A stretch of 64,000 bases of DNA from an uncultured Prevotellaceae bacterium (GTDB taxonomy: Bacteria > Bacteroidota > Bacteroidia > Bacteroidales > Bacteroidaceae). Below, piece after piece: positions 1 through 19,292 of the stretch. The notes beneath the pieces are model-generated. The model had not been told where the DNA came from and searched no databases. It saw only the letters and a program-made list of their open reading frames with translations. The position numbers were made by a program, and so were the translations under genes. Every line of letters starts with the position of its first letter. The stretch's first letter is position 1. Location: assembly GCA_900321425.1 (NCBI GenBank), contig ONWA01000004.1:1-64000 (forward strand), given 5' to 3'.

Positions 1-111
1 TTCAACTTCTGCCAGGGATAAGGATTAAGGTACCAAACAGGCATTCAACCTATGGCAGGGTTAAGGTAAAAACCATTCAACTTTTTCTAGGGTAGTACAC
101 TTTTTTGTATG

Positions 112-137
112 CAATGACAAATGACAGATGACAGTTT
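112..137 (+). repeat. 7-bp-unit repeat, copy 1
   Basis: Three contiguous 7-bp units ATGACA(A/G) preceded by CA and followed by TTT. The same 26 bases recur in the same orientation at 8168-8193, 25 of them recur inverted at 316-340, and an 18-base part recurs at 6249-6266. The two full direct copies enclose almost all the accessory genes. The unit structure resembles iterons or protein-binding arrays, but no function can be read from sequence alone. Confidence 0.85.
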
Positions 138-315
138 AGAACAGAGACTGATTATTATGGGTTGAGATGAGTATTCTCAAATAATTAGATTAGATAGATA
201 ATAAATATAATTTTATATGAATTTATTTATATATGTATATAGTTATAGTATAATATATATTTATTTCTACACAATTAATAATCGAAGACATTCTTGATCC
301 TACCGCTCATATTTG

Positions 316-340
316 AAACTGTCATCTGTCATTTGTCATT
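316..340 (-). repeat. 7-bp-unit repeat, inverted copy 2
   Basis: Exact reverse complement of 113-137. With copy 1 it forms a 25-bp inverted repeat around a 178-bp AT-rich core. The core contains no TAnnTTTG promoter in either orientation that I can see, so an invertible promoter is not supported. Confidence 0.85.
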
Positions 341-452
341 TTCTCACCTCGAAGTCCCACATCAATATGCATACTGCCAACATACTGAAGTTTAAAGAGA
401 AATGGTAAAATTCAGTTGTTAAGTATTTCTTAACTACTTTTCCAACGGAATT

Positions 453-483
453 TTTGTTTTCTCAGAAATAATTACTATCTTTG
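453..483 (+). promoter_or_regulatory. Promoter of structured RNA / methyltransferase unit
   Basis: TTTG at 453-456, a 19-nt spacer and TATCTTTG at 476-483 match the Bacteroidetes primary sigma consensus. Transcription would start near 487-490, about 300 nt ahead of the methyltransferase start codon, so a long structured leader or separate RNA is made first. Confidence 0.75.
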
Positions 484-487
484 CCAT

Positions 488-772
488 CGGTTCGGGGAGA
501 AATCCGGACTAATAAATAAAGCATTCGCTATTATTTCGCGTTCAGCCAAAAGCCTCGGAAACTTATTGGAAATAAAACGCAACGAGATAATACGTGGTAA
601 GGTGGTCATAATGGGCATCTTGCGCAATCTTAGTAAGACGAATGCATTCACACTTAGGTGTGGTGCATACTTGTAAGATTGCCGGGGTTTCCATCCGAGG
701 CTGCCTCGAAGCTGAACGCAAAAGGTGCATCACGCCTTTCTTGCGTCTTGGCGTGATTGATAGTCGGTGCCA
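488..772 (+). ncRNA. Candidate structured RNA of unknown class
   Basis: Five helices can be drawn by eye, nested in order. 538-546 pairs with 711-719 (9 bp, GCGTTCAGC/GCTGAACGC). 551-558 pairs with 695-702 (8 bp), extended by 559-562 with 687-690. 624-632 pairs with 674-682 (9 bp). 642-646 pairs with 664-668, capped by 649-653 with 658-662. A separate 8-bp hairpin joins 729-736 and 750-757. This much perfect long-range pairing over 220 nt is not expected by chance. A canonical promoter lies just upstream and the methyltransferase begins 24 nt after the end. It could be a leader element or a free RNA. It does not match tmRNA, RNase P or group II domain V motifs that I know. Confidence 0.7.
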
Positions 773-795
773 TAAACTTAAAACTATCAATTGAA

Positions 796-1764
796 ATGGC
801 AAATAAAAATACGAATCTACATCAAGCTAAAGAGGCAAAGAAAGATGAATTCTATACTCGCCGTGAAGATATTGAACACGAACTCTACCATTACCGTCGC
901 CAATTTGAAGGTAAAACTGTTTTATGTAACTGCGATGACCCACGTGTCAGCGAATTCTTTCAATATTTTGCACTAAATTTTGAGTGGTTAGGACTAAAAC
1001 GACTTATTTGTACATGCTACAAGAATAATGACATTGACCTATTTAGTCAGCATGATAAGGAACAGGCTGTATATCTCATATATGAGGGGGACAAGAACGG
1101 TAATAATCGTATAGATCCTGAAGAGATAGGAATTCACCCGTTGAAGGGAGATGGTGACTTTCGTTCGAAAGAGTGTATAGAGTTACTTAAACAGGCTGAT
1201 ATTGTTGTAACAAACCCGCCGTTTTCCCTATTCCGCCAATATGTGAAACAACTGATGGACTATAACAAACAGTTCCTCATCATTGGACACCAGAACGCCA
1301 TAACATATCAAGAGATATTTCCTTATTTCAAAGATAATCGTATGTGGCTTGGCTATGGTTTTAACCGAAACTGCGCACACTTTATCAGCCCGAATTACGA
1401 AGATACGGCAAGTGATGCAGACCATCGTGAGGGTATGATAAGAGTGTCGGGTGTAATGTGGTTCACAAATCTTAGGGTGAAGAAACGCGAAGATGAAATG
1501 GAATTTATCAAAAAATATAATTCCAAGGAATACCCTAAATACGACAATTATGATGCTATTGATGTTTCTAAGACACAGGATATTCCAGAAGACTATTATG
1601 GTGTTATGGGAGTACCCATTACGTTTATGACTAAATACAACCCAAATCAATTTGAAATAGTTGGGCTAATGGCTTCAACAACAGTCAGTGACATTAACTT
1701 TGGCTATCCATTTGTTAATGGCGAAAGGAAATACGCAAGAATATTAATCCGACATAAAAGATAA
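796..1764 (+). CDS. EcoRI-family adenine-specific DNA methyltransferase
   Basis: 322 aa, close to the length of EcoRI methylase (about 326 aa). It would transfer a methyl group from SAM to N6 of adenine in DNA. The amino end has the family-typical stretch KKDEFYTRREDIEHEL (residues 16-30), followed by a SAM-region segment CNCDDPR (44-50) and the catalytic NPPF motif at 140-143. An in-frame extension to a TTG at 757 would run into the last RNA hairpin, so the ATG at 796 is preferred. The gene lies 6 nt ahead of a DUF262-HNH gene, suggesting a restriction-modification or related defence pair. It appears intact to its C-terminus. Confidence 0.88.
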   Translation: MANKNTNLHQAKEAKKDEFYTRREDIEHELYHYRRQFEGKTVLCNCDDPRVSEFFQYFALNFEWLGLKRLICTCYKNNDIDLFSQHDKEQAVYLIYEGDKNGNNRIDPEEIGIHPLKGDGDFRSKECIELLKQADIVVTNPPFSLFRQYVKQLMDYNKQFLIIGHQNAITYQEIFPYFKDNRMWLGYGFNRNCAHFISPNYEDTASDADHREGMIRVSGVMWFTNLRVKKREDEMEFIKKYNSKEYPKYDNYDAIDVSKTQDIPEDYYGVMGVPITFMTKYNPNQFEIVGLMASTTVSDINFGYPFVNGERKYARILIRHKR

Positions 1765-1770
1765 TGCCCT

Positions 1771-2874
1771 ATGAAAATCCAATTAAAAGAAGTAACAATA
1801 GCTGAATTGTACGACGGCTATGAATATGATGAGTTGAGCGACATACTTGGCTATGGTGGCAAGTTGAACATTCGCCCAGCTTATCAGCGTGAGTTCATCT
1901 ATAAGCCCGAACAAGAACAGGAGGTCATTCGTTCGGTGATGCAGGAGTTTCCATTGAATGTTATGTATTGGAGCGATGAGGGCGACCACTACGAGCTACT
2001 GGACGGACAGCAACGCACCCTCTCCATTTGCCGCTACCTTGACCGTGCTTTCAGTGTTGATAAACTATATATCCACAATCAGACACCAGATATGCGTAAA
2101 CGCATTATGGATTACAAATTACTGATATATGTCTGCAAAGGCACAGTGTCAGAGAAGTTGAAATGGTTTAATGTTATCAACATCCAAGGAGAACGTCTTA
2201 GCGAACAAGAAATGAGAAATGCCGTATTTACAGGTGCATGGCTTACTGATGCAAAGAAACGTTTCTCAAAAGCTACTGGTAAAGGTGTCCTACTTGGTAC
2301 ACGTTATCTTGCTGGTGACCCAAAACGTCAGAAGTATCTGGAGACTGCCATCAAATGGGCAGCAAACAGTGACAAGGAACGATTTGGTGGAGAAATTGAG
2401 ACATACATGGGAATCTACCAAGACAAGCCCAATGCTAACGACTTGATGCTTTACTTCCAGAAAGTCATCAACTGGGTTGAAGCTACATTCCCTAAATACG
2501 ACCCACTGATGAAGGGTTTAGACTGGGGGAATATCTATGAGACCTACAAGGATAAGGAAAATATAGATACCGATGCACTTCAACAGGAATTAGAACGCTT
2601 ATGGATGGACGATGACGTCACGCACAAGGCAGGTGCCTATGAGTATGTCCTTGGCGGTGACGAAAAGGTTTTGAATATACGTAAGTTCTCGACTGCAATG
2701 GCAAAGGCAGCATATACACGTCAACAAGGAATTTGTCCGATTTGCGGAAAGCATTTTGAGTTGTCAGAAATGGAAGCAGACCATATTACTCCATGGAGTC
2801 AGAATGGCCCTACAAATGCCGAGAACTGCCAGATGCTATGCAGAGAGTGTAATAGAAGAAAGGGAGCTAAATAA
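1771..2874 (+). CDS. DUF262 and HNH endonuclease domain protein
   Basis: 367 aa. The N-terminal half is DUF262 (GmrS-like, ParB/sulfiredoxin-related fold): IRPAYQREFIY around residues 35-45 and the hallmark LLDGQQRTLSI near 77-87, which in relatives binds and hydrolyses nucleotide. The C-terminus is an HNH nuclease: paired cysteines at 322/325 and 357/360, with DH at 337-338 and the final CNRRKG. Such proteins cut DNA, often modified or phage DNA. The short spacing to the methyltransferase argues for one transcription unit. Whether it is the restriction partner or a type IV-like enzyme cannot be told from sequence. Confidence 0.85.
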   Translation: MKIQLKEVTIAELYDGYEYDELSDILGYGGKLNIRPAYQREFIYKPEQEQEVIRSVMQEFPLNVMYWSDEGDHYELLDGQQRTLSICRYLDRAFSVDKLYIHNQTPDMRKRIMDYKLLIYVCKGTVSEKLKWFNVINIQGERLSEQEMRNAVFTGAWLTDAKKRFSKATGKGVLLGTRYLAGDPKRQKYLETAIKWAANSDKERFGGEIETYMGIYQDKPNANDLMLYFQKVINWVEATFPKYDPLMKGLDWGNIYETYKDKENIDTDALQQELERLWMDDDVTHKAGAYEYVLGGDEKVLNIRKFSTAMAKAAYTRQQGICPICGKHFELSEMEADHITPWSQNGPTNAENCQMLCRECNRRKGAK

Positions 2875-2898
2875 AAAATAATTTAAGCATTTACGACT

Positions 2899-3240
2899 AT
2901 GGATAATGAGAAAAAACTGCCAGATGAGTTGAAAGATTATATTTTAGACCCATCAAAAGACTATCGACAGACATTAACAATGTGGCGCGTGGATAAGAAA
3001 GGGAACCTGATATGGGTAAAGACCAAGAATGGAACCAACAAATCGTACTACATCATCGAAAAGAGTCAACTGACGGAAGATGATTGGCTGACCCACATGC
3101 GCGGTAAGATGGATGCCGATGAGTTTGGCGAGTTTGCATGTGCATACTTCAAGGCATGTGAAATGGCTGGTATCAAAGAACTGAAGGTAAAGTTACGTGG
3201 AGAGTTCAACCGAGCTTTCAAATTTGCCGATGAAGAGTGA
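2899..3240 (+). CDS. Hypothetical protein of the methyltransferase/HNH cluster
   Basis: 113 aa, charged, with no signal peptide or membrane segment. I recognise no family. A middle stretch (around residues 45-60) rich in Lys and Tyr is followed by a predicted helical C-terminal half. It begins 24 nt after the HNH gene and shares its strand, so it is probably co-transcribed and may be an accessory or specificity factor; that role is inference from position only. Confidence 0.65.
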   Translation: MDNEKKLPDELKDYILDPSKDYRQTLTMWRVDKKGNLIWVKTKNGTNKSYYIIEKSQLTEDDWLTHMRGKMDADEFGEFACAYFKACEMAGIKELKVKLRGEFNRAFKFADEE

Positions 3241-3283
3241 GTTTATTATTTTTAGTTCATAAAATTAGAAATAGTTACGTTTT

Positions 3284-4129
3284 ATGGCACGAGGTAAAGT
3301 AATAACGACGCATTTGCGTACCGGCGACCCCAACGGGATTCGCACCGTGTTCATCAGCAACAAGATTTGCGAGATGATAGTATTTCCCAAGTCGGAATTT
3401 GATGCGGTGAGCAAGATGGAAGAGAGTTCGCGCCCTGCACTCTACATTCTGCTGGGTGAGGACGAGAACGGCAGCGCACAGGCTTACATCGGAGAATCGA
3501 CCAATGGCGTGAAGCGTATCTATAACCATAAATCGCATAAGCTGTTTTGGAACAAATGTCTGATGTTTGTGGCCAAGGACGAGAGCATCAATAAAGCCGA
3601 CGTGCAATACTTGGAGCGCAAGGCTATCGACTTGGCAACGGATTGTGCTCAGTATGGCGTAATGAACGAGCAGTCGGGCAAGGAAATTTCGCTGTCGAAC
3701 TATCAGATAGACATTATGGAGGAATTCTTCGATGATGTCCGTCTGTTGGCATCGTTCATTGGCTGTCCCATCTTCGAGAAACAGGAGAAGGCGAAGATGA
3801 AGAACGGCGAGAACCTGTTTCATATCAAAGTGCGTGACGCTAAAGCTCATGCCATCTTCAACGAGACCGATCACTCGATGCGTATTCTGAAGGGCAGTCT
3901 GCTGCCACAAAGCACGGTTCCCTCGTACAGAGACGGCGAAAAGCGTAATGCCATCATAGCTGCCATATCGAAGCCTACCAAGGACGGTTTCTGGGAGTTG
4001 CAGCAAGACTATGTGCTGGCCAGTCCCAGCACGGCAGCCAGTTATTGTTCAGGTCGCAGCACCAACGGATGGGAGCATTGGATCAACGATGCGGGAAAGT
4101 CGCTCGATGAATTATTTCGAAGCGAGTAA
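3284..4129 (+). CDS. GIY-YIG nuclease family protein with C-terminal DUF4357
   Basis: 281 aa. A GIY-YIG-like core spans about residues 50-140: ALYILLG (52-58), AYIGES (67-72), the arginine in GVKRIY and a later LERKAI that would carry the catalytic glutamate. The C-terminal part (about 190-270) contains HSMRILKGSLLP, typical of DUF4357, a domain often fused to restriction-related nucleases and methylases. It follows the 113-aa gene by 43 nt. Codon use is more GC-rich than the genes on either side, hinting at a different origin. A DNA nuclease role in defence is likely but not proven. Confidence 0.78.
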   Translation: MARGKVITTHLRTGDPNGIRTVFISNKICEMIVFPKSEFDAVSKMEESSRPALYILLGEDENGSAQAYIGESTNGVKRIYNHKSHKLFWNKCLMFVAKDESINKADVQYLERKAIDLATDCAQYGVMNEQSGKEISLSNYQIDIMEEFFDDVRLLASFIGCPIFEKQEKAKMKNGENLFHIKVRDAKAHAIFNETDHSMRILKGSLLPQSTVPSYRDGEKRNAIIAAISKPTKDGFWELQQDYVLASPSTAASYCSGRSTNGWEHWINDAGKSLDELFRSE

Positions 4130-4255
4130 ATATATATAAATGTAAAAATTATTTACCGTTCAAAAATTTAAAAACTACAAAATAGGACTTATAGGGAATA
4201 GCTCAAATTTTGTAAAGATTTAAAAAACGCGTGTAAAAAAATTTTTGCGCATATG

Positions 4256-4286
4256 TGTGATACTCATCGAGTATCACATTTTTTTT
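4256..4286 (+). terminator. Rho-independent terminator
   Basis: A perfect 10-bp stem TGTGATACTC/GAGTATCACA with a 3-nt ATC loop is followed by eight T residues. It lies about 125 nt after the GIY-YIG gene and closes the first block of the island. The 170 bases around it are AT-rich and otherwise featureless. Confidence 0.85.
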
Positions 4287-4322
4287 GCGACATTTTTCTG
4301 TTTCAGACGGGATGACTTGCCC

Positions 4323-4353
4323 TTGACAAGCCGAATCAAAATGCTTACCTTCG
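4323..4353 (+). promoter_or_regulatory. Promoter of the 4430 gene
   Basis: TTG at 4323-4325, a 20-nt spacer and TACCTTCG at 4346-4353 give a one-mismatch Bacteroidetes promoter. It starts a new unit after the terminator, leaving a leader of about 70 nt. Confidence 0.55.
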
Positions 4354-4429
4354 TAGAAGGCGGGTAAACCCCTGCATACAAAATCCTAGTATCTCGTAGC
4401 GATTGCACTAATTGCGTCGCTTCGAGATT

Positions 4430-4840
4430 ATGACAAAACAAATAAAAAAATTTAAGCGAACCAAAGCGTTCTACGACATCATCAAGCGACGTAAGCAATG
4501 TCGCGAGTATTTTATTCGTTGGATGGAAGACAATGCCGACATCATGAACTTAAACAAGGGAAGTGAGTTGGCGAAACTGTCCTATATCGAATTTAATTTT
4601 GTTCCTCATGGGCGACGTTCCCAAGGAGACATTACGAAAAGTGTAATTTATGAGCGTTTAGCCATTCTCTTCTTAGGTGTAGGAATGGCTGATGGATTTG
4701 AGTATGGAGCAGAATCATTTTTTCGTTACATTACGAGCAAAGACCATTCAAATCTTGCAACGAGACCAAGTGTCTTGAAACGCGAGATAATGCGATATAT
4801 TCAGTACAATCGAGAGAAGAAAAAACTGGTGGGAATTTAA
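4430..4840 (+). CDS. Basic hypothetical protein
   Basis: 136 aa from the ATG at 4430; an in-frame TTG 18 nt upstream is a weaker start. The first 40 residues are very basic (KKFKRTKAFYDIIKRRKQC), then mixed helical sequence follows, and the C-terminus is again basic. No signal peptide or membrane segment is seen and I recognise no family. Its own promoter and the isolated position between a terminator and another promoter suggest independent expression. A nucleic-acid-binding function is suggested only by charge. Confidence 0.6.
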   Translation: MTKQIKKFKRTKAFYDIIKRRKQCREYFIRWMEDNADIMNLNKGSELAKLSYIEFNFVPHGRRSQGDITKSVIYERLAILFLGVGMADGFEYGAESFFRYITSKDHSNLATRPSVLKREIMRYIQYNREKKKLVGI

Positions 4841-4894
4841 TATTTAATTATGTGAACAATCTGAAAATATTTGACGTTTTTGGCAAAATAATTA

Positions 4895-4923
4895 TTGATG
4901 TATTGATATTCTTAATACATTTG
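4895..4923 (+). promoter_or_regulatory. Promoter of the 58-aa gene
   Basis: TTG at 4895-4897 and TACATTTG at 4916-4923, with an 18-nt spacer that is slightly short. The start codon of a 58-aa frame lies 22 nt downstream. Confidence 0.5.
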
Positions 4924-4945
4924 CACCGAGCAATCCAAATCGGAT

Positions 4946-5122
4946 ATGTCTCAAGTGTTCTTTCACATATTTGAAAGTATAAATTGTTGGGCTGACGAGC
5001 CCAAAGATCGTATGGCTCCTGTTTGTGAACATCGAGCCAATTCTCTATGCAAGCTGCAAGGTAATAGGAAAGACCAGCTGGATTTTCATGCCTCAAAGCT
5101 ATATGTTAGAAATTTTGTATAA
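4946..5122 (+). CDS. Small hypothetical protein, 58 aa
   Basis: An ATG-to-TAA frame of 58 codons begins MSQVFFHIFESINCWADEPK and is read without interruption. It has a promoter just upstream and ends 17 nt before the next gene, so it fills the gap between two genes in a consistent operon arrangement. It has three cysteines and no membrane segment. No family is recognised. The support is contextual only. Confidence 0.45.
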   Translation: MSQVFFHIFESINCWADEPKDRMAPVCEHRANSLCKLQGNRKDQLDFHASKLYVRNFV

Positions 5123-5139
5123 TCATAATTCATAAAATT

Positions 5140-5454
5140 ATGAAGAAACAAATAAAAACACCTTGTGCGACCATTATTTGTAACGGTTGCCCGGCTCTCT
5201 CTCGTAGGGCAAAGTATTTGATCAAGTTTCTGAAAGGTCTTGTTCCAAACGATGCCCTTACTTATCTGGAATGCGAGTTCTGTGCTGAGACTCGCCACTA
5301 TCAGAACATGATGGCTGAGAGAATATTCGCTATATTGGTTGATTCTTTGAAACCCAGTAGCATTGAAGACTCGCGACTGTCGATGAAAGTGAACGAACTC
5401 GCACGGATACTTATAGGGTATATCAACCCATTCCAATTCGATAGAGACGAGTAA
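5140..5454 (+). CDS. Hypothetical protein with two CxxC pairs
   Basis: 104 aa. It contains CNGC near residues 14-17 and CEFC near 45-48, a spacing that could bind one zinc ion, embedded in a helical protein with no signal peptide. No family is recognised. It lies directly upstream of the replication-like genes and has similar AT-rich composition, so it probably belongs to the same mobile unit. Confidence 0.6.
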   Translation: MKKQIKTPCATIICNGCPALSRRAKYLIKFLKGLVPNDALTYLECEFCAETRHYQNMMAERIFAILVDSLKPSSIEDSRLSMKVNELARILIGYINPFQFDRDE

Positions 5455-5468
5455 GATGTAGTAAACCC

Positions 5469-5505
5469 GGTGCGCGCTTTTGCAATATATGTAGAGGCGC
5501 GTACC
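5469..5505. promoter_or_regulatory. Stem-loop after the 5140 gene
   Basis: GGTGCGCGC at 5469-5477 can pair with GGCGCGTACC at 5496-5505 with one mismatch, around an AT-rich loop of 18 nt. No T-run follows, so this is more likely a leader or processing structure than a terminator. Confidence 0.4.
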
Positions 5506-5535
5506 TATTTAAGAATTTATAATAAAGTCAACAAT

Positions 5536-5688
5536 ATGGAAAAATTTATTTTTGCCAGACCTCGAAGACTGCTCTTTTCTGGAACAGGGATATCGCTTAA
5601 ACGGTTCTGTACAACTACTACGCAGTGGATGGTGCTCTTCGTAGCCGACAGAATTACCGATGTAAGTAACCATAAAACAAATATATAG
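5536..5688 (+). CDS. Possible small protein, 50 aa
   Basis: A 50-codon frame from an ATG at 5536 ends 4 nt before the BT4734-like gene. It begins MEKFIFARPRRLLFSG and has no recognisable domain. Another frame through the same DNA reads equally plausibly as protein but lacks a start codon, so this stretch may instead be an eroded gene. Low confidence. Confidence 0.25.
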   Translation: MEKFIFARPRRLLFSGTGISLKRFCTTTTQWMVLFVADRITDVSNHKTNI

Positions 5689-5692
5689 TATT

Positions 5693-6268
5693 ATGAGTAG
5701 GATGGATTTTGAAATGTCATTTTTCAAGGCGCCAATTACCAACAAGACGCCAGAGAGAACAGTTACTTTGCTTGAGGTGTCTAAGGCCATCAAGAGCATT
5801 TGGTTGGAACCACAGACACAGGCTTTGCGTAAAATCACCGATGAGGTGGAAGCACGTCGCTACAAAGGCCAAAACTTCCCTTATGTAACTCCTGCTGGAG
5901 TGTTCCGCTATTGTAATGATCAATCACTCATCTGCCATTCCGGAGTGCTCTGTATGGATCTGGATCATATTCAGGATGTAGACGGGTTGAAACATCGCTT
6001 GATAGCAGATAACCTGTTTGAGACACTGATGGCTTTCCGTTCACCTTCCGGCGATGGATTGAAATGGTTCATTAAGATTGATCTCGCAAAGTGTGGGCAT
6101 CGTCAGTGGTTCGATGCTGTTCGCAACTATTTGATATCACCTGCTTATGGGCTTACTCCCAAACAAGCCGACCCGTCGGTACGGAATGAATCGAGAGCCT
6201 GTTTCCTCTGTTATGACCCTGAGGTCTATGTAAATCCTATGTTATTGACAATGACAAATGACAGATAA
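5693..6268 (+). CDS. BT4734/VirE N-terminal domain protein
   Basis: 191 aa, the size of a stand-alone BT4734-like N-terminal domain. Typical features are MSFFKAPITNKTPERTVTL near the start, the acidic motif GVLCMDLDHIQD around residue 85-96 and SPSGDGLKWFIKI near 117-129, resembling the active-site region of archaeo-eukaryotic-type primases. In Bacteroidales this protein commonly precedes PriCT-2 and DUF3987 genes in mobile or phage-like loci. Its 3' end overlaps the next gene by 11 nt and contains a copy of the 7-bp-unit repeat. A DNA primase-like role is inferred from family and neighbours. Confidence 0.8.
   Translation: MSRMDFEMSFFKAPITNKTPERTVTLLEVSKAIKSIWLEPQTQALRKITDEVEARRYKGQNFPYVTPAGVFRYCNDQSLICHSGVLCMDLDHIQDVDGLKHRLIADNLFETLMAFRSPSGDGLKWFIKIDLAKCGHRQWFDAVRNYLISPAYGLTPKQADPSVRNESRACFLCYDPEVYVNPMLLTMTNDR
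6249..6266 (+). repeat. 7-bp-unit repeat, partial copy 3
   Basis: CAATGACAAATGACAGAT is identical to the first 18 bases of the repeat at 112 and 8168. It covers the last codons of the BT4734-like gene and the first codons of the PriCT-2 gene, so it is coding in two frames. Confidence 0.75.
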
Positions 6269-6728
6269 AATGGACACACAGAATACTTCCACATTCGACC
6301 CTCTGGCTTGGTTAGGACAGCAGGGTAATAGCGACAACAAAAACAGTCAAGCGATGGTTACCCCAAGTCGTCAACCATCGGTCAGCCATCCTCTTTCTCA
6401 CACAGAAGAACTGGAAAAGGCCACTGCTGTTGCTCAGGAGCTCATCAAAAGGAATGCCAACATAGCTGAGTCATATTATGACTATGTCAGGCTGGGGTTC
6501 GCTTTGGTCAACGGTCTTGGCTGTGATGGCCGTGACATCTATCACATGTTGTGTGCACATAGCACAAAATACCGCATGGCAGAATGTGAACGAAAGTGGC
6601 AGGAATGTCTTCGGAAGGCCGATGGGCGTACCAGTATTGCCACTTACTACCATATGGCCCAACAAGCAGGAGTAGACATCAGTGAAGTGGTTCGCAATTA
6701 TAGAAAAAATCATATTTATTCATATTAA
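6258..6728 (+). CDS. PriCT-2 (primase C-terminal 2) domain protein
   Basis: 156 aa from ATG at 6258; a second ATG at 6270 is also possible. After a Ser/Gln-rich amino-terminal linker (1-50), residues 60-145 match the PriCT-2 pattern: SYYDYVRLGFALVNGLGCDG, then WQECLRKADGRTSIATYYHM. This domain normally follows a primase catalytic domain; here it is separate and overlaps the BT4734-like gene by 11 nt, suggesting a two-part primase. The next gene starts 12 nt after its stop. Confidence 0.72.
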   Translation: MTDKMDTQNTSTFDPLAWLGQQGNSDNKNSQAMVTPSRQPSVSHPLSHTEELEKATAVAQELIKRNANIAESYYDYVRLGFALVNGLGCDGRDIYHMLCAHSTKYRMAECERKWQECLRKADGRTSIATYYHMAQQAGVDISEVVRNYRKNHIYSY

Positions 6729-6740
6729 ATTTTTAAAACA

Positions 6741-8180
6741 ATGAAAGAAATTAAAGTAGAAAAAAAGGTCGCTAAGACCACAAAGGAGAAAAAAGTATCT
6801 TCAAAGAAAGAAGTCAACAACCGTAGCACGTATCGCAGTTCAGCGGTAAAAAAGGGAAAACCTATCTACAAGCCGTTGACGTGGTCAGAAGTGTTTGCAA
6901 GCGAACAATTGCCTCCGCTACCAACGATGTTACCCAAACTGATAGAGATGACTATCTCGCAGACACCTGACCTGCTGAAAGGTACTGTGGCTCAAGCTGC
7001 TCCCGTTCCTTACTCTGTCTATCCGCGCAAGTTGTGTTTTGTCTACATCGACAACCGAACTCGCGAACTCCGTATGAATTGTCTGTTAGTAGCCAAGGAA
7101 GGAGGCGGTAAGGAGTGTATCACGTTGCCCTTCAAACGCATTATGGCAGAAATCAAGGCCAACGACAAACGAAACCGTCGCAGGTTAAAGGAGTTTAACG
7201 AGAAATACAACAGTGCTCGTACAGACGCAGACAAGCCTCAAAGACCCCACGATCTCATCATCCAATGGCTTCATCCTGACATTACGCGTCCTCGACTGGG
7301 CCAGGCTATGGAGGATGCCCAGGAGGCATTCCTGATCTTAAAACTCAATGAGATTGAAGACTGGGATCGTGTGGAAGGTCAGAGAGGTAAAGCCAACTCG
7401 TTTAGCATCATGAAGCTTGTGGATGACGAAGATAACGACTTCGGCCAGGACAGAGTGGGCTCGCAAAGTGTAAATGCCGACGGGTGTCTTCGACTGAATT
7501 GGCTGGCTGATACAACAGAGCCAAAACTAAAGAAGTATTTCCGTTATATTCATGGAGAAGGACCAATCTCACGTATTACTATGGGTGGTATTCCTACTGT
7601 AGAAATTGGAGCTCCTATCCCCGTCTTTGGCGATTACGACAAGAAGTACGACGATAGCATTCGTCCTTTTATTGAGAACCTGAAAAAAGCTACAGGAACC
7701 ATCGTTTGCAAAGAGGCTCAGAAGATGATAAAGAAGTTGAAAGCCGAGATTGATGAGTTCACGTCGATGACGCAAGATAGAATTCTTGATTCTCTCTCAC
7801 ATCGCAGTCTAGTTGCCGCTTTTAGGCGAGCTTGTCTCATCTACGCTGCCAATGGTATGGTTTGGGAGCGCGAAATAGAAAATTATTGCCGTTGGTCTAT
7901 GCAAGTTGATCTCTTCTTAAAATACAAGCTTTTTGCCGACGACATCATTTCGGCCACAAATGGAATCCAATTGGATAAACCCGGTCCACAAATTCTGCTG
8001 GAGAAGGTCAAGGTCGACGAACAGGGTTTCTTCAGCTTTGACGAAGTGGTACGTGTCTATACAGAAAGCGGGAAGAGCCCCGATGAGAAAAAGGTTAAGA
8101 ATATGGTAAGCCAATGGAAATCAAGGAAATATATTGAAGAAACCTCTGATGGCAAATACCGAAGAATCAATGACAAATGA
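6741..8180 (+). CDS. DUF3987-like primase/helicase-associated protein
   Basis: 479 aa. The first 40 residues are Lys-rich and probably disordered. The central part resembles DUF3987 proteins that sit beside BT4734/PriCT-2 genes, with LLVAKEGGGKE near residues 115-125 in the position of a Walker A loop, though the canonical GKS/T is replaced by GKE. A C-terminal stretch from about 400 looks like a winged-helix module. If the loop is degenerate, ATP hydrolysis is doubtful. The stop codon lies inside a full copy of the 7-bp-unit repeat. It is probably the last gene of the island's replication-like operon. Confidence 0.7.
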   Translation: MKEIKVEKKVAKTTKEKKVSSKKEVNNRSTYRSSAVKKGKPIYKPLTWSEVFASEQLPPLPTMLPKLIEMTISQTPDLLKGTVAQAAPVPYSVYPRKLCFVYIDNRTRELRMNCLLVAKEGGGKECITLPFKRIMAEIKANDKRNRRRLKEFNEKYNSARTDADKPQRPHDLIIQWLHPDITRPRLGQAMEDAQEAFLILKLNEIEDWDRVEGQRGKANSFSIMKLVDDEDNDFGQDRVGSQSVNADGCLRLNWLADTTEPKLKKYFRYIHGEGPISRITMGGIPTVEIGAPIPVFGDYDKKYDDSIRPFIENLKKATGTIVCKEAQKMIKKLKAEIDEFTSMTQDRILDSLSHRSLVAAFRRACLIYAANGMVWEREIENYCRWSMQVDLFLKYKLFADDIISATNGIQLDKPGPQILLEKVKVDEQGFFSFDEVVRVYTESGKSPDEKKVKNMVSQWKSRKYIEETSDGKYRRINDK

Positions 8181-18916: not shown

Positions 18917-18987
18917 AGCGGAATACGGGAATCGAACCCGCCTCCCAGGCTTGGGAAGCCCGTGCACTACCGATGTGCTAATTCCGC
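18917..18987 (-). tRNA. tRNA-Gly (anticodon CCC)
   Basis: 71 nt, acceptor GCGGAAT with ATTCCGC, anticodon loop TTCCCAA giving CCC, T-loop GGTTCGATTCC, discriminator T as usual for glycine. No encoded CCA. Confidence 0.93.
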
Positions 18988-19009
18988 ATGCTCGCAACCG
19001 CCTCGAAAG

Positions 19010-19082
<73 letters not shown>

Positions 19083-19103
19083 AAACGGCTTTCCCTTCCT
19101 TTG

Positions 19104-19176
19104 TACACCCGCAGGGGCTCGAACCCTGGACACCCTGATTAAGAGTCAGGTGCTCTACCAACTGAGCTACGGGTGC
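19104..19176 (-). tRNA. tRNA-Lys (anticodon CTT), copy 1
   Basis: 73 nt, acceptor GCACCCG with CGGGTGT, anticodon loop CTCTTAA giving CTT, T-loop GGTTCGAGCCC. Identical to the copy at 19220-19292. Confidence 0.93.
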
Positions 19177-19219
19177 ATCATAATATCTCAAAAAGAAAGG
19201 TGGTCACTGCCACCTCATG

Positions 19220-19292
19220 TACACCCGCAGGGGCTCGAACCCTGGACACCCTGATTAAGAGTCAGGTGCTCTACCAACTGAGCTACGGGTGC
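19220..19292 (-). tRNA. tRNA-Lys (anticodon CTT), copy 2
   Basis: Identical in sequence to the copy at 19104-19176 and first in the operon after the promoter. Such tandem copies raise gene dosage and can recombine. Confidence 0.93.

What the first reader, a model, noticed from the sequence alone, without database searches (positions are those of the whole stretch)
488..772. Large structured RNA placed directly before a methyltransferase/HNH gene pair
A consensus promoter starts a transcript that can fold into a nested helix set with perfect arms of 9, 8, 9 and 10 bp (the last split 5+5) plus a separate 8-bp hairpin, then reaches the methyltransferase ATG after 24 nt. It looks like a defined noncoding RNA family or a complex leader, not a short attenuator. 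Its link to a modification enzyme and an HNH nuclease invites comparison with RNA-linked defence or mobile systems, but no IscB, RT or Cas gene is present.
Basis: partly seen in the sequence, partly recalled or inferred. Interest (0 to 1): 0.78.

Follow-up and report, generated by a model that had tools for sequence, protein, structure and literature searches.

The report
Shared RNA switch before defence genes
The start of this window's transcript is a large folded RNA of a family not listed in Rfam that stands in front of many different DNA-restriction genes, and of some cell-surface genes, of gut Bacteroidales, where it most likely works as an on/off switch for making the protein that follows.

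Summary
In detail: window 488-772 folds far better than shuffles (z -5.9), starts at a Bacteroidetes-type promoter, and the fold continues to the start codon (hairpin 754-793). It is a real RNA family. A covariance model found it in 155 of 398 genomes of the same genus and 82 of 301 of the family. In 79 distinct copies 97.6% of cells pair and 37 of 45 pairs show two-sided changes, including a pseudoknot and a long-range pairing that the search model did not contain. No Rfam 15 family reached its threshold.

It is a 5' leader, not a guide RNA. Of 89 copies of the window's class, 62 precede an EcoRI-type methyltransferase, 13 other restriction or candidate defence genes, 6 envelope-modifying enzymes. 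Near-identical leaders stand before different genes. A second class precedes mainly secreted or surface proteins; a short relative occurs across Bacteroidales.

Best reading: a cis-acting switch. One strand (758-763) can pair with the RNA's 5' end or within a hairpin that ends 2 nt before the AUG; another (657-667) has two co-evolving partners. The signal is unknown, and nothing was tested by experiment.

The parts
453..483 (+). Bacteroidetes-type promoter: TTTG (453-456), 19-bp spacer, TATCTTTG (476-483)
   Evidence: Sequence. TAnnTTTG lies 30-120 nt upstream of the core in 46 of 51 class-1 and 26 of 28 other copies (the 79 with enough upstream DNA), against 88 of 1600 control windows. The consensus is recalled.
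489..510 (+). P0: 5'-terminal hairpin GGUUCGGG-GAGAAA-UCCGGACU; in part of the copies replaced by other sequence
   Evidence: Fold; UCGGGGAGAAAUCCGG recurs upstream of many copies with changed flanking pairs (by eye).
521..533 (+). 5' strand of P1 (GCAUU 521-525, CUAUUA 528-533)
   Evidence: Pairs when the RNA ends at 772; CUAUUA/UGAUAG invariant in the 17-copy alignment, so no covariation for these six pairs there.
538..719 (+). Core: P2 538-546/711-719, P3 551-559/694-702, P4 567-572/688-693, P5 624-632/674-682
   Evidence: helices 99.7, 99.7, 96.5 and 95.5% paired, double changes at 8 of 9, 8 of 8, 2 of 4, 8 of 8 pairs (alignment fitted to these helices); a covariation scan without structure ranks P2, P3 and P5 pairs first.
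642..653 (+). Y1, local partner of Y (apical hairpin of P5)
   Evidence: Own Y1:Y duplex better than the mean with other copies in 68 of 78.
657..669 (+). Y, strand with two partners: Y1 (642-653) or X (726-736)
   Evidence: Y:X own better than cross in 75 of 78; control Y1:X 43 of 78.
684..707 (+). Pseudoknot PK1: GGGG 684-687 with CCUC 704-707
   Evidence: 98.0% paired, 3 of 4 pairs with double changes, not part of the search model.
721..739 (+). P6 hairpin (721-725/735-739) whose loop holds most of X (726-736, complementary to Y)
   Evidence: Y-X columns 95.9% paired, 3 of 7 with double changes; P6 itself by eye.
741..752 (+). P2'': possible alternative partner of the P2 3' strand (711-719)
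   Evidence: Own better than cross in 60 of 78 copies; weakest of the alternative pairings.
754..793 (+). Start-site hairpin: P1' 754-764 with W 783-793, ending 2 nt before the ATG; competes with P1
   Evidence: Fold. A stem scoring >=9 near the ATG (any hairpin counted) in 69 of 89 class-1 against 8 of 32 class-2 copies; W motif in 73 of 89 against 1 of 34.
796..1764 (+). EcoRI-type adenine methyltransferase (322 aa)
   Evidence: PF13651 E 6e-130; PADLOC MTase_II E 1e-116.
1771..2874 (+). GmrSD_N/HNH protein, predicted type II restriction enzyme (367 aa)
   Evidence: PF03235, PF01844; PADLOC REase_II E 1e-114.
2899..3240 (+). 113-aa protein of the same gene row, no family
3284..4129 (+). DUF4357 protein, candidate defence family PDC-S14 (281 aa)

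Best explanation
Window 488-793 is the 5' leader of a predicted type II restriction-modification operon and belongs to a large, unlisted family of cis-acting structured leader RNAs of Bacteroidales. The transcript starts at about 488 (inferred from the promoter) with a hairpin and folds into a pseudoknotted core (P2-P5, PK1, P6; shown by covariation). The core can close itself with P1, which pairs the RNA's 5' end (521-533) with the strand just after the core (758-770). The same strand (P1') can instead pair with W (783-793), which places a hairpin directly before the methyltransferase start codon (mutual exclusion follows from the sequence). Inferred: when the core is folded and P1 is closed, the start site is free and the operon is translated; when it is not, the P1'-W hairpin blocks initiation. 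A second exchange inside the core (Y with Y1 or X) presumably couples a signal, a small molecule, a protein or the rate of folding, to P1. The leader is a module: it stands in front of different restriction, defence and envelope genes.
For: Family and structure: (97.6% paired; covariation 0.599 against 0.048-0.075 for slid partners), covariation scan, 141 G-U against 22 A-C cells, as expected of RNA read on this strand. Leader position: 123 of 128 distinct copies have an ORF on their strand starting within 260 nt; in 89 class-1 copies a median 25 nt downstream (the other strand was not used as a control). Own promoter. Start-site hairpin in class 1, seldom in class 2, with compensated variants such as GGATAATAG/CTATTATCC (L062) and AGTGATAGGT/ACCTATCATT (L077). 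Mutually exclusive partners with co-evolution on both sides. Folding energies of the two states differ by a median 4.5 kcal/mol, start-site hairpin favoured in 35 of the 41 copies that carry the exact motifs, a gap a bound ligand could pay. Modularity: leaders 95% identical before a MmeI-type and a DUF4268 gene, 92% before an N6/N4 and an EcoRI-type methylase.
Against: No RNA or expression data. The six P1b pairs never vary in the 17-copy alignment, so P1 rests on complementarity, on the P1a pairs and on differently spelled P1 helices in relatives seen by eye. 20 of 89 class-1 copies lack a strong start-site hairpin by the test used; in several of them the called ATG is an earlier in-frame one. 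Class 2 mostly lacks P1' and W, so the translation step cannot be the core's general job. Of 17 short relatives before defence-type genes three have a start-site stem that few of 50 shuffles match (L195 2, L171 4, L168 6); for the other 14 it is 9 to 50. In the short class Y1:Y co-evolves (38 of 43) but Y:X does not significantly (27 of 43, p 0.10). The duplex tests treat related copies as independent. Folding energies ignore pseudoknots. R1 and R2 were trained on copies that recur in later counts.
Confidence: 0.72

Rival explanations
1. Constitutive leader: the RNA is a stability and spacing module (5' hairpin plus compact fold) that raises or evens out expression of whatever it precedes, without sensing anything. 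The alternative pairings are by-products of repeated motifs.
For: It precedes very different genes; the core is kept in class 2 without the start-site hairpin.
Against: Y keeps two partners that co-evolve (68 of 78 and 75 of 78 better than cross, control 43 of 78), and P1' also has two partners; a passive module needs neither.
Confidence: 0.2
2. Trans-acting RNA: the 250-285-nt RNA is cut off or terminated and acts on its own (regulator, decoy or ribonucleoprotein of the defence genes); its place before the gene is only co-transcription.
For: Own promoter, compact pseudoknotted core, size typical of large noncoding RNAs (recalled).
Against: No terminator found at 400-900; the start-site hairpin ties the RNA to the AUG of the next gene in class 1; partners range from restriction enzymes to surface proteins, so a common protein partner is unlikely.
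Confidence: 0.1
3. Guide or scaffold RNA of an HNH nuclease (OMEGA/IscB-like) or retron-like element.
Against: The HNH protein shares only the HNH patch with IscB/Cas9d (25-29 bits, cut-offs 175 and 375) and is a REase_II by PADLOC; no RT among the nine ORFs scanned; the leader also stands directly before MmeI, HsdM, HsdR, Tsp45I and acyltransferase genes.
Confidence: 0.02
4. DNA-level element: a recombination or replication site whose inverted repeats act as cruciforms, spread by gene exchange.
For: Near-identical leaders before different genes; repeated copies on one strand exist (L061, L239).
Against: G-U far exceeds A-C among the pairs (141 against 22); promoter at a fixed distance; an ORF follows on the same strand.
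Confidence: 0.03

Closest known systems
Translation-controlling riboswitches (general class, recalled)
   Same: Large covarying core with pseudoknots, P1-type closing helix that competes with a hairpin at the start codon, several genes under one RNA class
   Different: No ligand known; genes do not share a metabolic pathway; partners are restriction, defence, envelope and surface genes
DUF805 RNA, Rfam RF03081 (cis-reg)
   Same: Leader element of Bacteroidota; lies 13, 22 and 104 nt downstream of the short relative in L155, L156 and L163
   Different: A separate 68-nt element; not found in the window; it is a neighbour, not the same RNA
Candidate structured RNAs of PMC2864571 and PMC8040213 (passages seen)
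   Same: Some are Bacteroidales or Prevotella elements
   Different: In the passages seen none is tied to restriction-modification genes; motifs that are in Rfam do not match the window; supplements were not read (none allowed), so an unnamed candidate there could overlap
Control of restriction-modification operons by C proteins and antisense RNA (recalled)
   Same: Regulation of a restriction-modification operon at its start
   Different: Here one RNA family serves several types of system; no ORF of 60 aa or more lies in window 1-488

Membership tests
Any Rfam 15 family | Score above the curated gathering score | tested here: not met
   Window: only six tRNAs; 1-1000 at E<=10: L13_leader 22.2 of 44 bits and two weaker matches. 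40 loci of short relatives: only DUF805 beside it, one tRNA, one group II fragment. Two short relatives at E<=5: best pntA, 28.5 of 54 bits, E 0.014, partly over the RNA of L218; the rest E>1.
Riboswitch | Conserved structured receptor domain supported by covariation | tested here: met
   (structure; that it is a receptor is not shown)
Riboswitch | Expression platform mutually exclusive with the closed receptor | tested here: inconclusive
   Present by sequence in class 1; mostly absent in class 2; no functional data
Riboswitch | Specific binding of a small molecule without protein | not testable with these tools
   needs in-line probing or SHAPE
OMEGA RNA of IscB/TnpB | Linked IscB or TnpB gene | tested here: not met
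   (window genes up to 8177)
Retron ncRNA | Linked reverse transcriptase | tested here: not met
   no RT among the nine ORFs scanned at 796-8177
Transcription attenuator | Intrinsic terminator between RNA and gene | tested here: not met
   0 found at 400-900; in the short class a U run follows strand X, not tested further
DUF805 RNA | RF03081 match over the element | tested here: not met

The most novel reading that the evidence does not exclude
A new class of riboswitch (or protein-sensing leader) that puts different restriction-modification and other defence systems of gut Bacteroidales, together with envelope-modifying and surface genes, under one common signal, such as a nucleotide messenger, an infection-derived metabolite or a host state, so that defence and surface identity are set together; it travels as a module with the genes.
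Probability: 0.3. Interest if true: 0.93.

Novelty: new variant of a known kind. Interest (0 to 1): 0.8.

Why it matters
How restriction-modification genes are controlled is known mostly for single systems (recalled). Here one RNA module sits before about ten different families of restriction and candidate defence gene, so one experiment (what opens the switch?) would bear on many systems at once. The leader also serves as a handle: genes without a known family behind a class-1 leader (the L100/L117/L123 look-alikes, the L047/L057 pair) become candidates for unknown defence genes. The family is large and nothing in Rfam 15 matched it.

Tried and rejected
Conserved protein: rejected, no + frame open in 78 of 78 copies; on the - strand 6 frames in all are open. 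Chance fold: rejected. Guide RNA or retron: rejected. Terminator/attenuator for the window: none found. Phage or plasmid origin: no DNA match at E<=0.01 in the phage or plasmid collections (near relatives of the window's genome may be left out there) and no exact hit of a 21-base 5' signature in viral contigs. The first RNAalifold structure paired Y with X but missed most of P2-P5 because the alignment was wrong in the variable arm; replaced by hand-set helices on nine copies and a search-based alignment. RNAalifold did badly on the short class (11 pairs), so model R3 is mainly a sequence profile. Paper searches turned up no description of the family; the library holds open-licence papers and no bioRxiv; of PMC8040213 and PMC2864571 I saw passages, of all others only listings.

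Counting limits: when many genomes are searched only 5-11 candidates per genome are scored, and lists were cut, so copy numbers are lower bounds; E-values are rough. Class 1 was defined by GATTGATAGT (up to 2 mismatches) near the RNA's end; seven class-2 members have methylase genes (L062, L064, L079, L108, L138, L142, L150) and L166 looks like one, while L069 in class 1 has a TAT-type signal by eye. 5 of 128 distinct copies had no ORF and were left out (L007, L098, second copy of L061, minus copy of L067, L135). The 30 methyltransferase loci are those handed out of 56 listed matches. The named-genome pattern sample (80 of at least 118 stretches shown; 69 usable, of which 49 have an EcoRI-type start by motif) overlaps the model-based sample and is no independent test. 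In it two loci (L271, L301) have glycosyltransferase-like first ORFs by eye.

Full report
What is there. The finding at 488-772 is real. A Bacteroidetes-type promoter (TTTG 453-456, TATCTTTG 476-483) is followed by a 285-nt stretch with MFE -108 kcal/mol, z -5.87, none of 200 shuffles as good. Extending to 830 gives z -6.48 and shows a hairpin 754-764/783-793 that ends 2 nt before the methyltransferase ATG at 796. The genes behind it are an EcoRI-type methyltransferase and a GmrSD_N/HNH protein that PADLOC calls a type II restriction enzyme (E 1e-114), then a 113-aa protein and a DUF4357 protein of candidate defence family PDC-S14. So the operon is a predicted type II restriction-modification system.

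A family. A DNA search found relatives in 26 of 100 related genomes (some of these hits cover only the promoter and 5' part). Nine well-aligned copies gave covariance model R1, which matched 155 of 398 genomes of the same genus, 62 of 175 among the better assemblies. R2, built on 81 rows, matched 82 of 301 genomes of the family (18 of 30 genera; E<=0.01), 26 of 295 of the order (E<=0.001) and 2 of 296 of the phylum sample, one being the window's own genome. Some weak R2 hits are a short relative of about 185 nt; R3, built from 28 of these and mainly a sequence profile, matched 83 of 228 genomes of the order and 25 of 228 of the phylum. Record titles among the named hits include Prevotella, Xylanibacter ruminicola, Paludibacteraceae, Muribaculaceae, Bacteroides rodentium JCM 16496 and Marseilla massiliensis. 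No Rfam 15 family reached its gathering score over the RNA; below it, L13_leader (E 1.6, window) and pntA (E 0.014, partly over the RNA of L218) are the best.

Structure. On A3 (81 rows, 79 distinct) the named structure has 97.6% standard pairs, 37 of 45 pairs with changes on both sides, and a covariation score of 0.599 against 0.048-0.075 with slid partners; none of 500 shuffles reached any measure. The alignment was fitted to the nested helices of R1, so these lean towards the structure; the pseudoknot GGGG/CCCC (98.0% paired) and the Y-X pairing (95.9%) were not in R1. A scan without any structure ranks P2, P3 and P5 pairs first. Within pairs there are 141 G-U and 22 A-C cells over 78 copies, so the constraint is on RNA of this strand. 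No + frame is open in any of 78 copies.

Position and partners. Of 129 model hits (128 distinct), 123 have an ORF of 60 aa or more on their strand, starting between 15 nt before and 260 nt after the end of the model match; the other strand was not used as a control. Class 1 (89 copies, defined by GATTGATAGT near the RNA's end) starts its ORF a median 25 nt downstream. By Pfam the first gene is EcoRI_methylase in 62, N6_N4 methylase in 3, DUF4268 in 2, HsdR_N in 2, and one each Tsp45I, HsdM/N6_Mtase, MmeI, ResIII, RNase_T and PLD/NgoFVII, together 75 of 89; 4 are acyltransferase-3 and 2 sulfatase/EptA-like; by subtraction 8 have none of these. Of the last 8, L027 is a 101-aa ORF in front of an N6_Mtase ORF. 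The DUF4268 and RNase_T proteins tested (L045, L054) match candidate defence families, and the Bacteroides rodentium copy precedes a type III methyltransferase. Class 2 (34 copies): about half have secretion signals by eye (BspA-type LRR, CsgG, OMP, lipoproteins among those scanned), seven have methylase genes, the rest are mixed or without family. In the other direction, of 30 loci with PF13651 genes (handed out of the matches in 37 positive genomes of 100), 19 have a leader at E<=1e-16 directly upstream, 5 more a weak match (E 0.00014 to 0.87, mostly not significant alone) at the same place, one has no upstream DNA and 5 show none.

A module. Leaders are 95% identical before a MmeI-type and a DUF4268 gene and 92% before an N6/N4 and an EcoRI-type methylase, while the median identity of class-1 pairs in that set is 60%. 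One locus (L332) carries an acyltransferase-like protein whose first residues look like those of the methyltransferase (by eye).

How it may work. The strand 758-763 is complementary both to 528-533 (P1) and to part of 783-793. In class 1 a stem scoring 9 or more close to the ATG is found in 69 of 89 copies, against 8 of 32 in class 2; the W motif in 73 of 89 against 1 of 34, and compensated variants occur. Without pseudoknots the start-site hairpin is favoured over P1 in 35 of 41 copies that carry the exact motifs, by a median 4.5 kcal/mol over all 41. Strand Y (657-667) pairs with Y1 or X: each copy's own duplex beats the mean of duplexes with other copies in 68 of 78 (Y1:Y) and 75 of 78 (Y:X), the control Y1:X in 43 of 78. 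The P2 3' strand has a weaker second partner (60 of 78). I infer a switch: core folded and P1 closed, start site free; otherwise the start site is blocked. Which signal decides is open.

What does not fit. The start-site hairpin is not general: class 2 mostly lacks it, and of 17 short relatives before defence-type genes 14 show little beyond shuffles. In the short class Y1:Y co-evolves (38 of 43) but Y:X does not significantly (27 of 43). The P1b pairs do not vary among 17 close copies. All tests treat related copies as independent. There are no expression data.

Verdict. As a kind it is a cis-regulatory leader, but one shared by different defence and surface genes.

Noticed in passing
L019, minus strand, from about 1544 downwards (G004): The same type of promoter and 5' hairpin P0 (CGGGGAGAAAUCCGG) stand before a leader that looks different; other leader classes may share this 5' end.
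   Followed up: no
window 113-137 and 316-340; also upstream of the leaders in L047 and L055: A repeat (AAACTGTCATCTGTCATTTGTCATT and its inverse) lies upstream of the leader here and, in part, before two other leaders.
   Followed up: no
L155 1700-1765, L156 1410-1478, L163 1790-1855: Rfam DUF805 RNA lies 13, 22 and 104 nt downstream of the short relative.
   Followed up: partly
L332 around 2372-3057: ORF starting MTSKNLNAAKAAKK then an acyltransferase-like sequence (by eye): methyltransferase-like start joined to another gene, perhaps a trace of cassette exchange.
   Followed up: no
L239 1280-1475 and 1501-1676; L061 643-891 and 4385-4638: Tandem or closely repeated copies of the RNA on one strand.
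   Followed up: no
L100, L117, L123 and L047, L057 (first genes): Two protein groups behind class-1 leaders. L117 and L057 match no Pfam, PADLOC or NCBIfam model; L100 none in Pfam and PADLOC (NCBIfam not run); candidates for unknown defence genes.
   Followed up: partly
G000:C56:35603-35850, C19:2181-2381, C32:14316-14518: The window's own genome holds three more matches (one class 2 by R2, two by R3, the last weak).
   Followed up: partly
window 18917-19292: Cluster of four tRNA genes on the minus strand.
   Followed up: no
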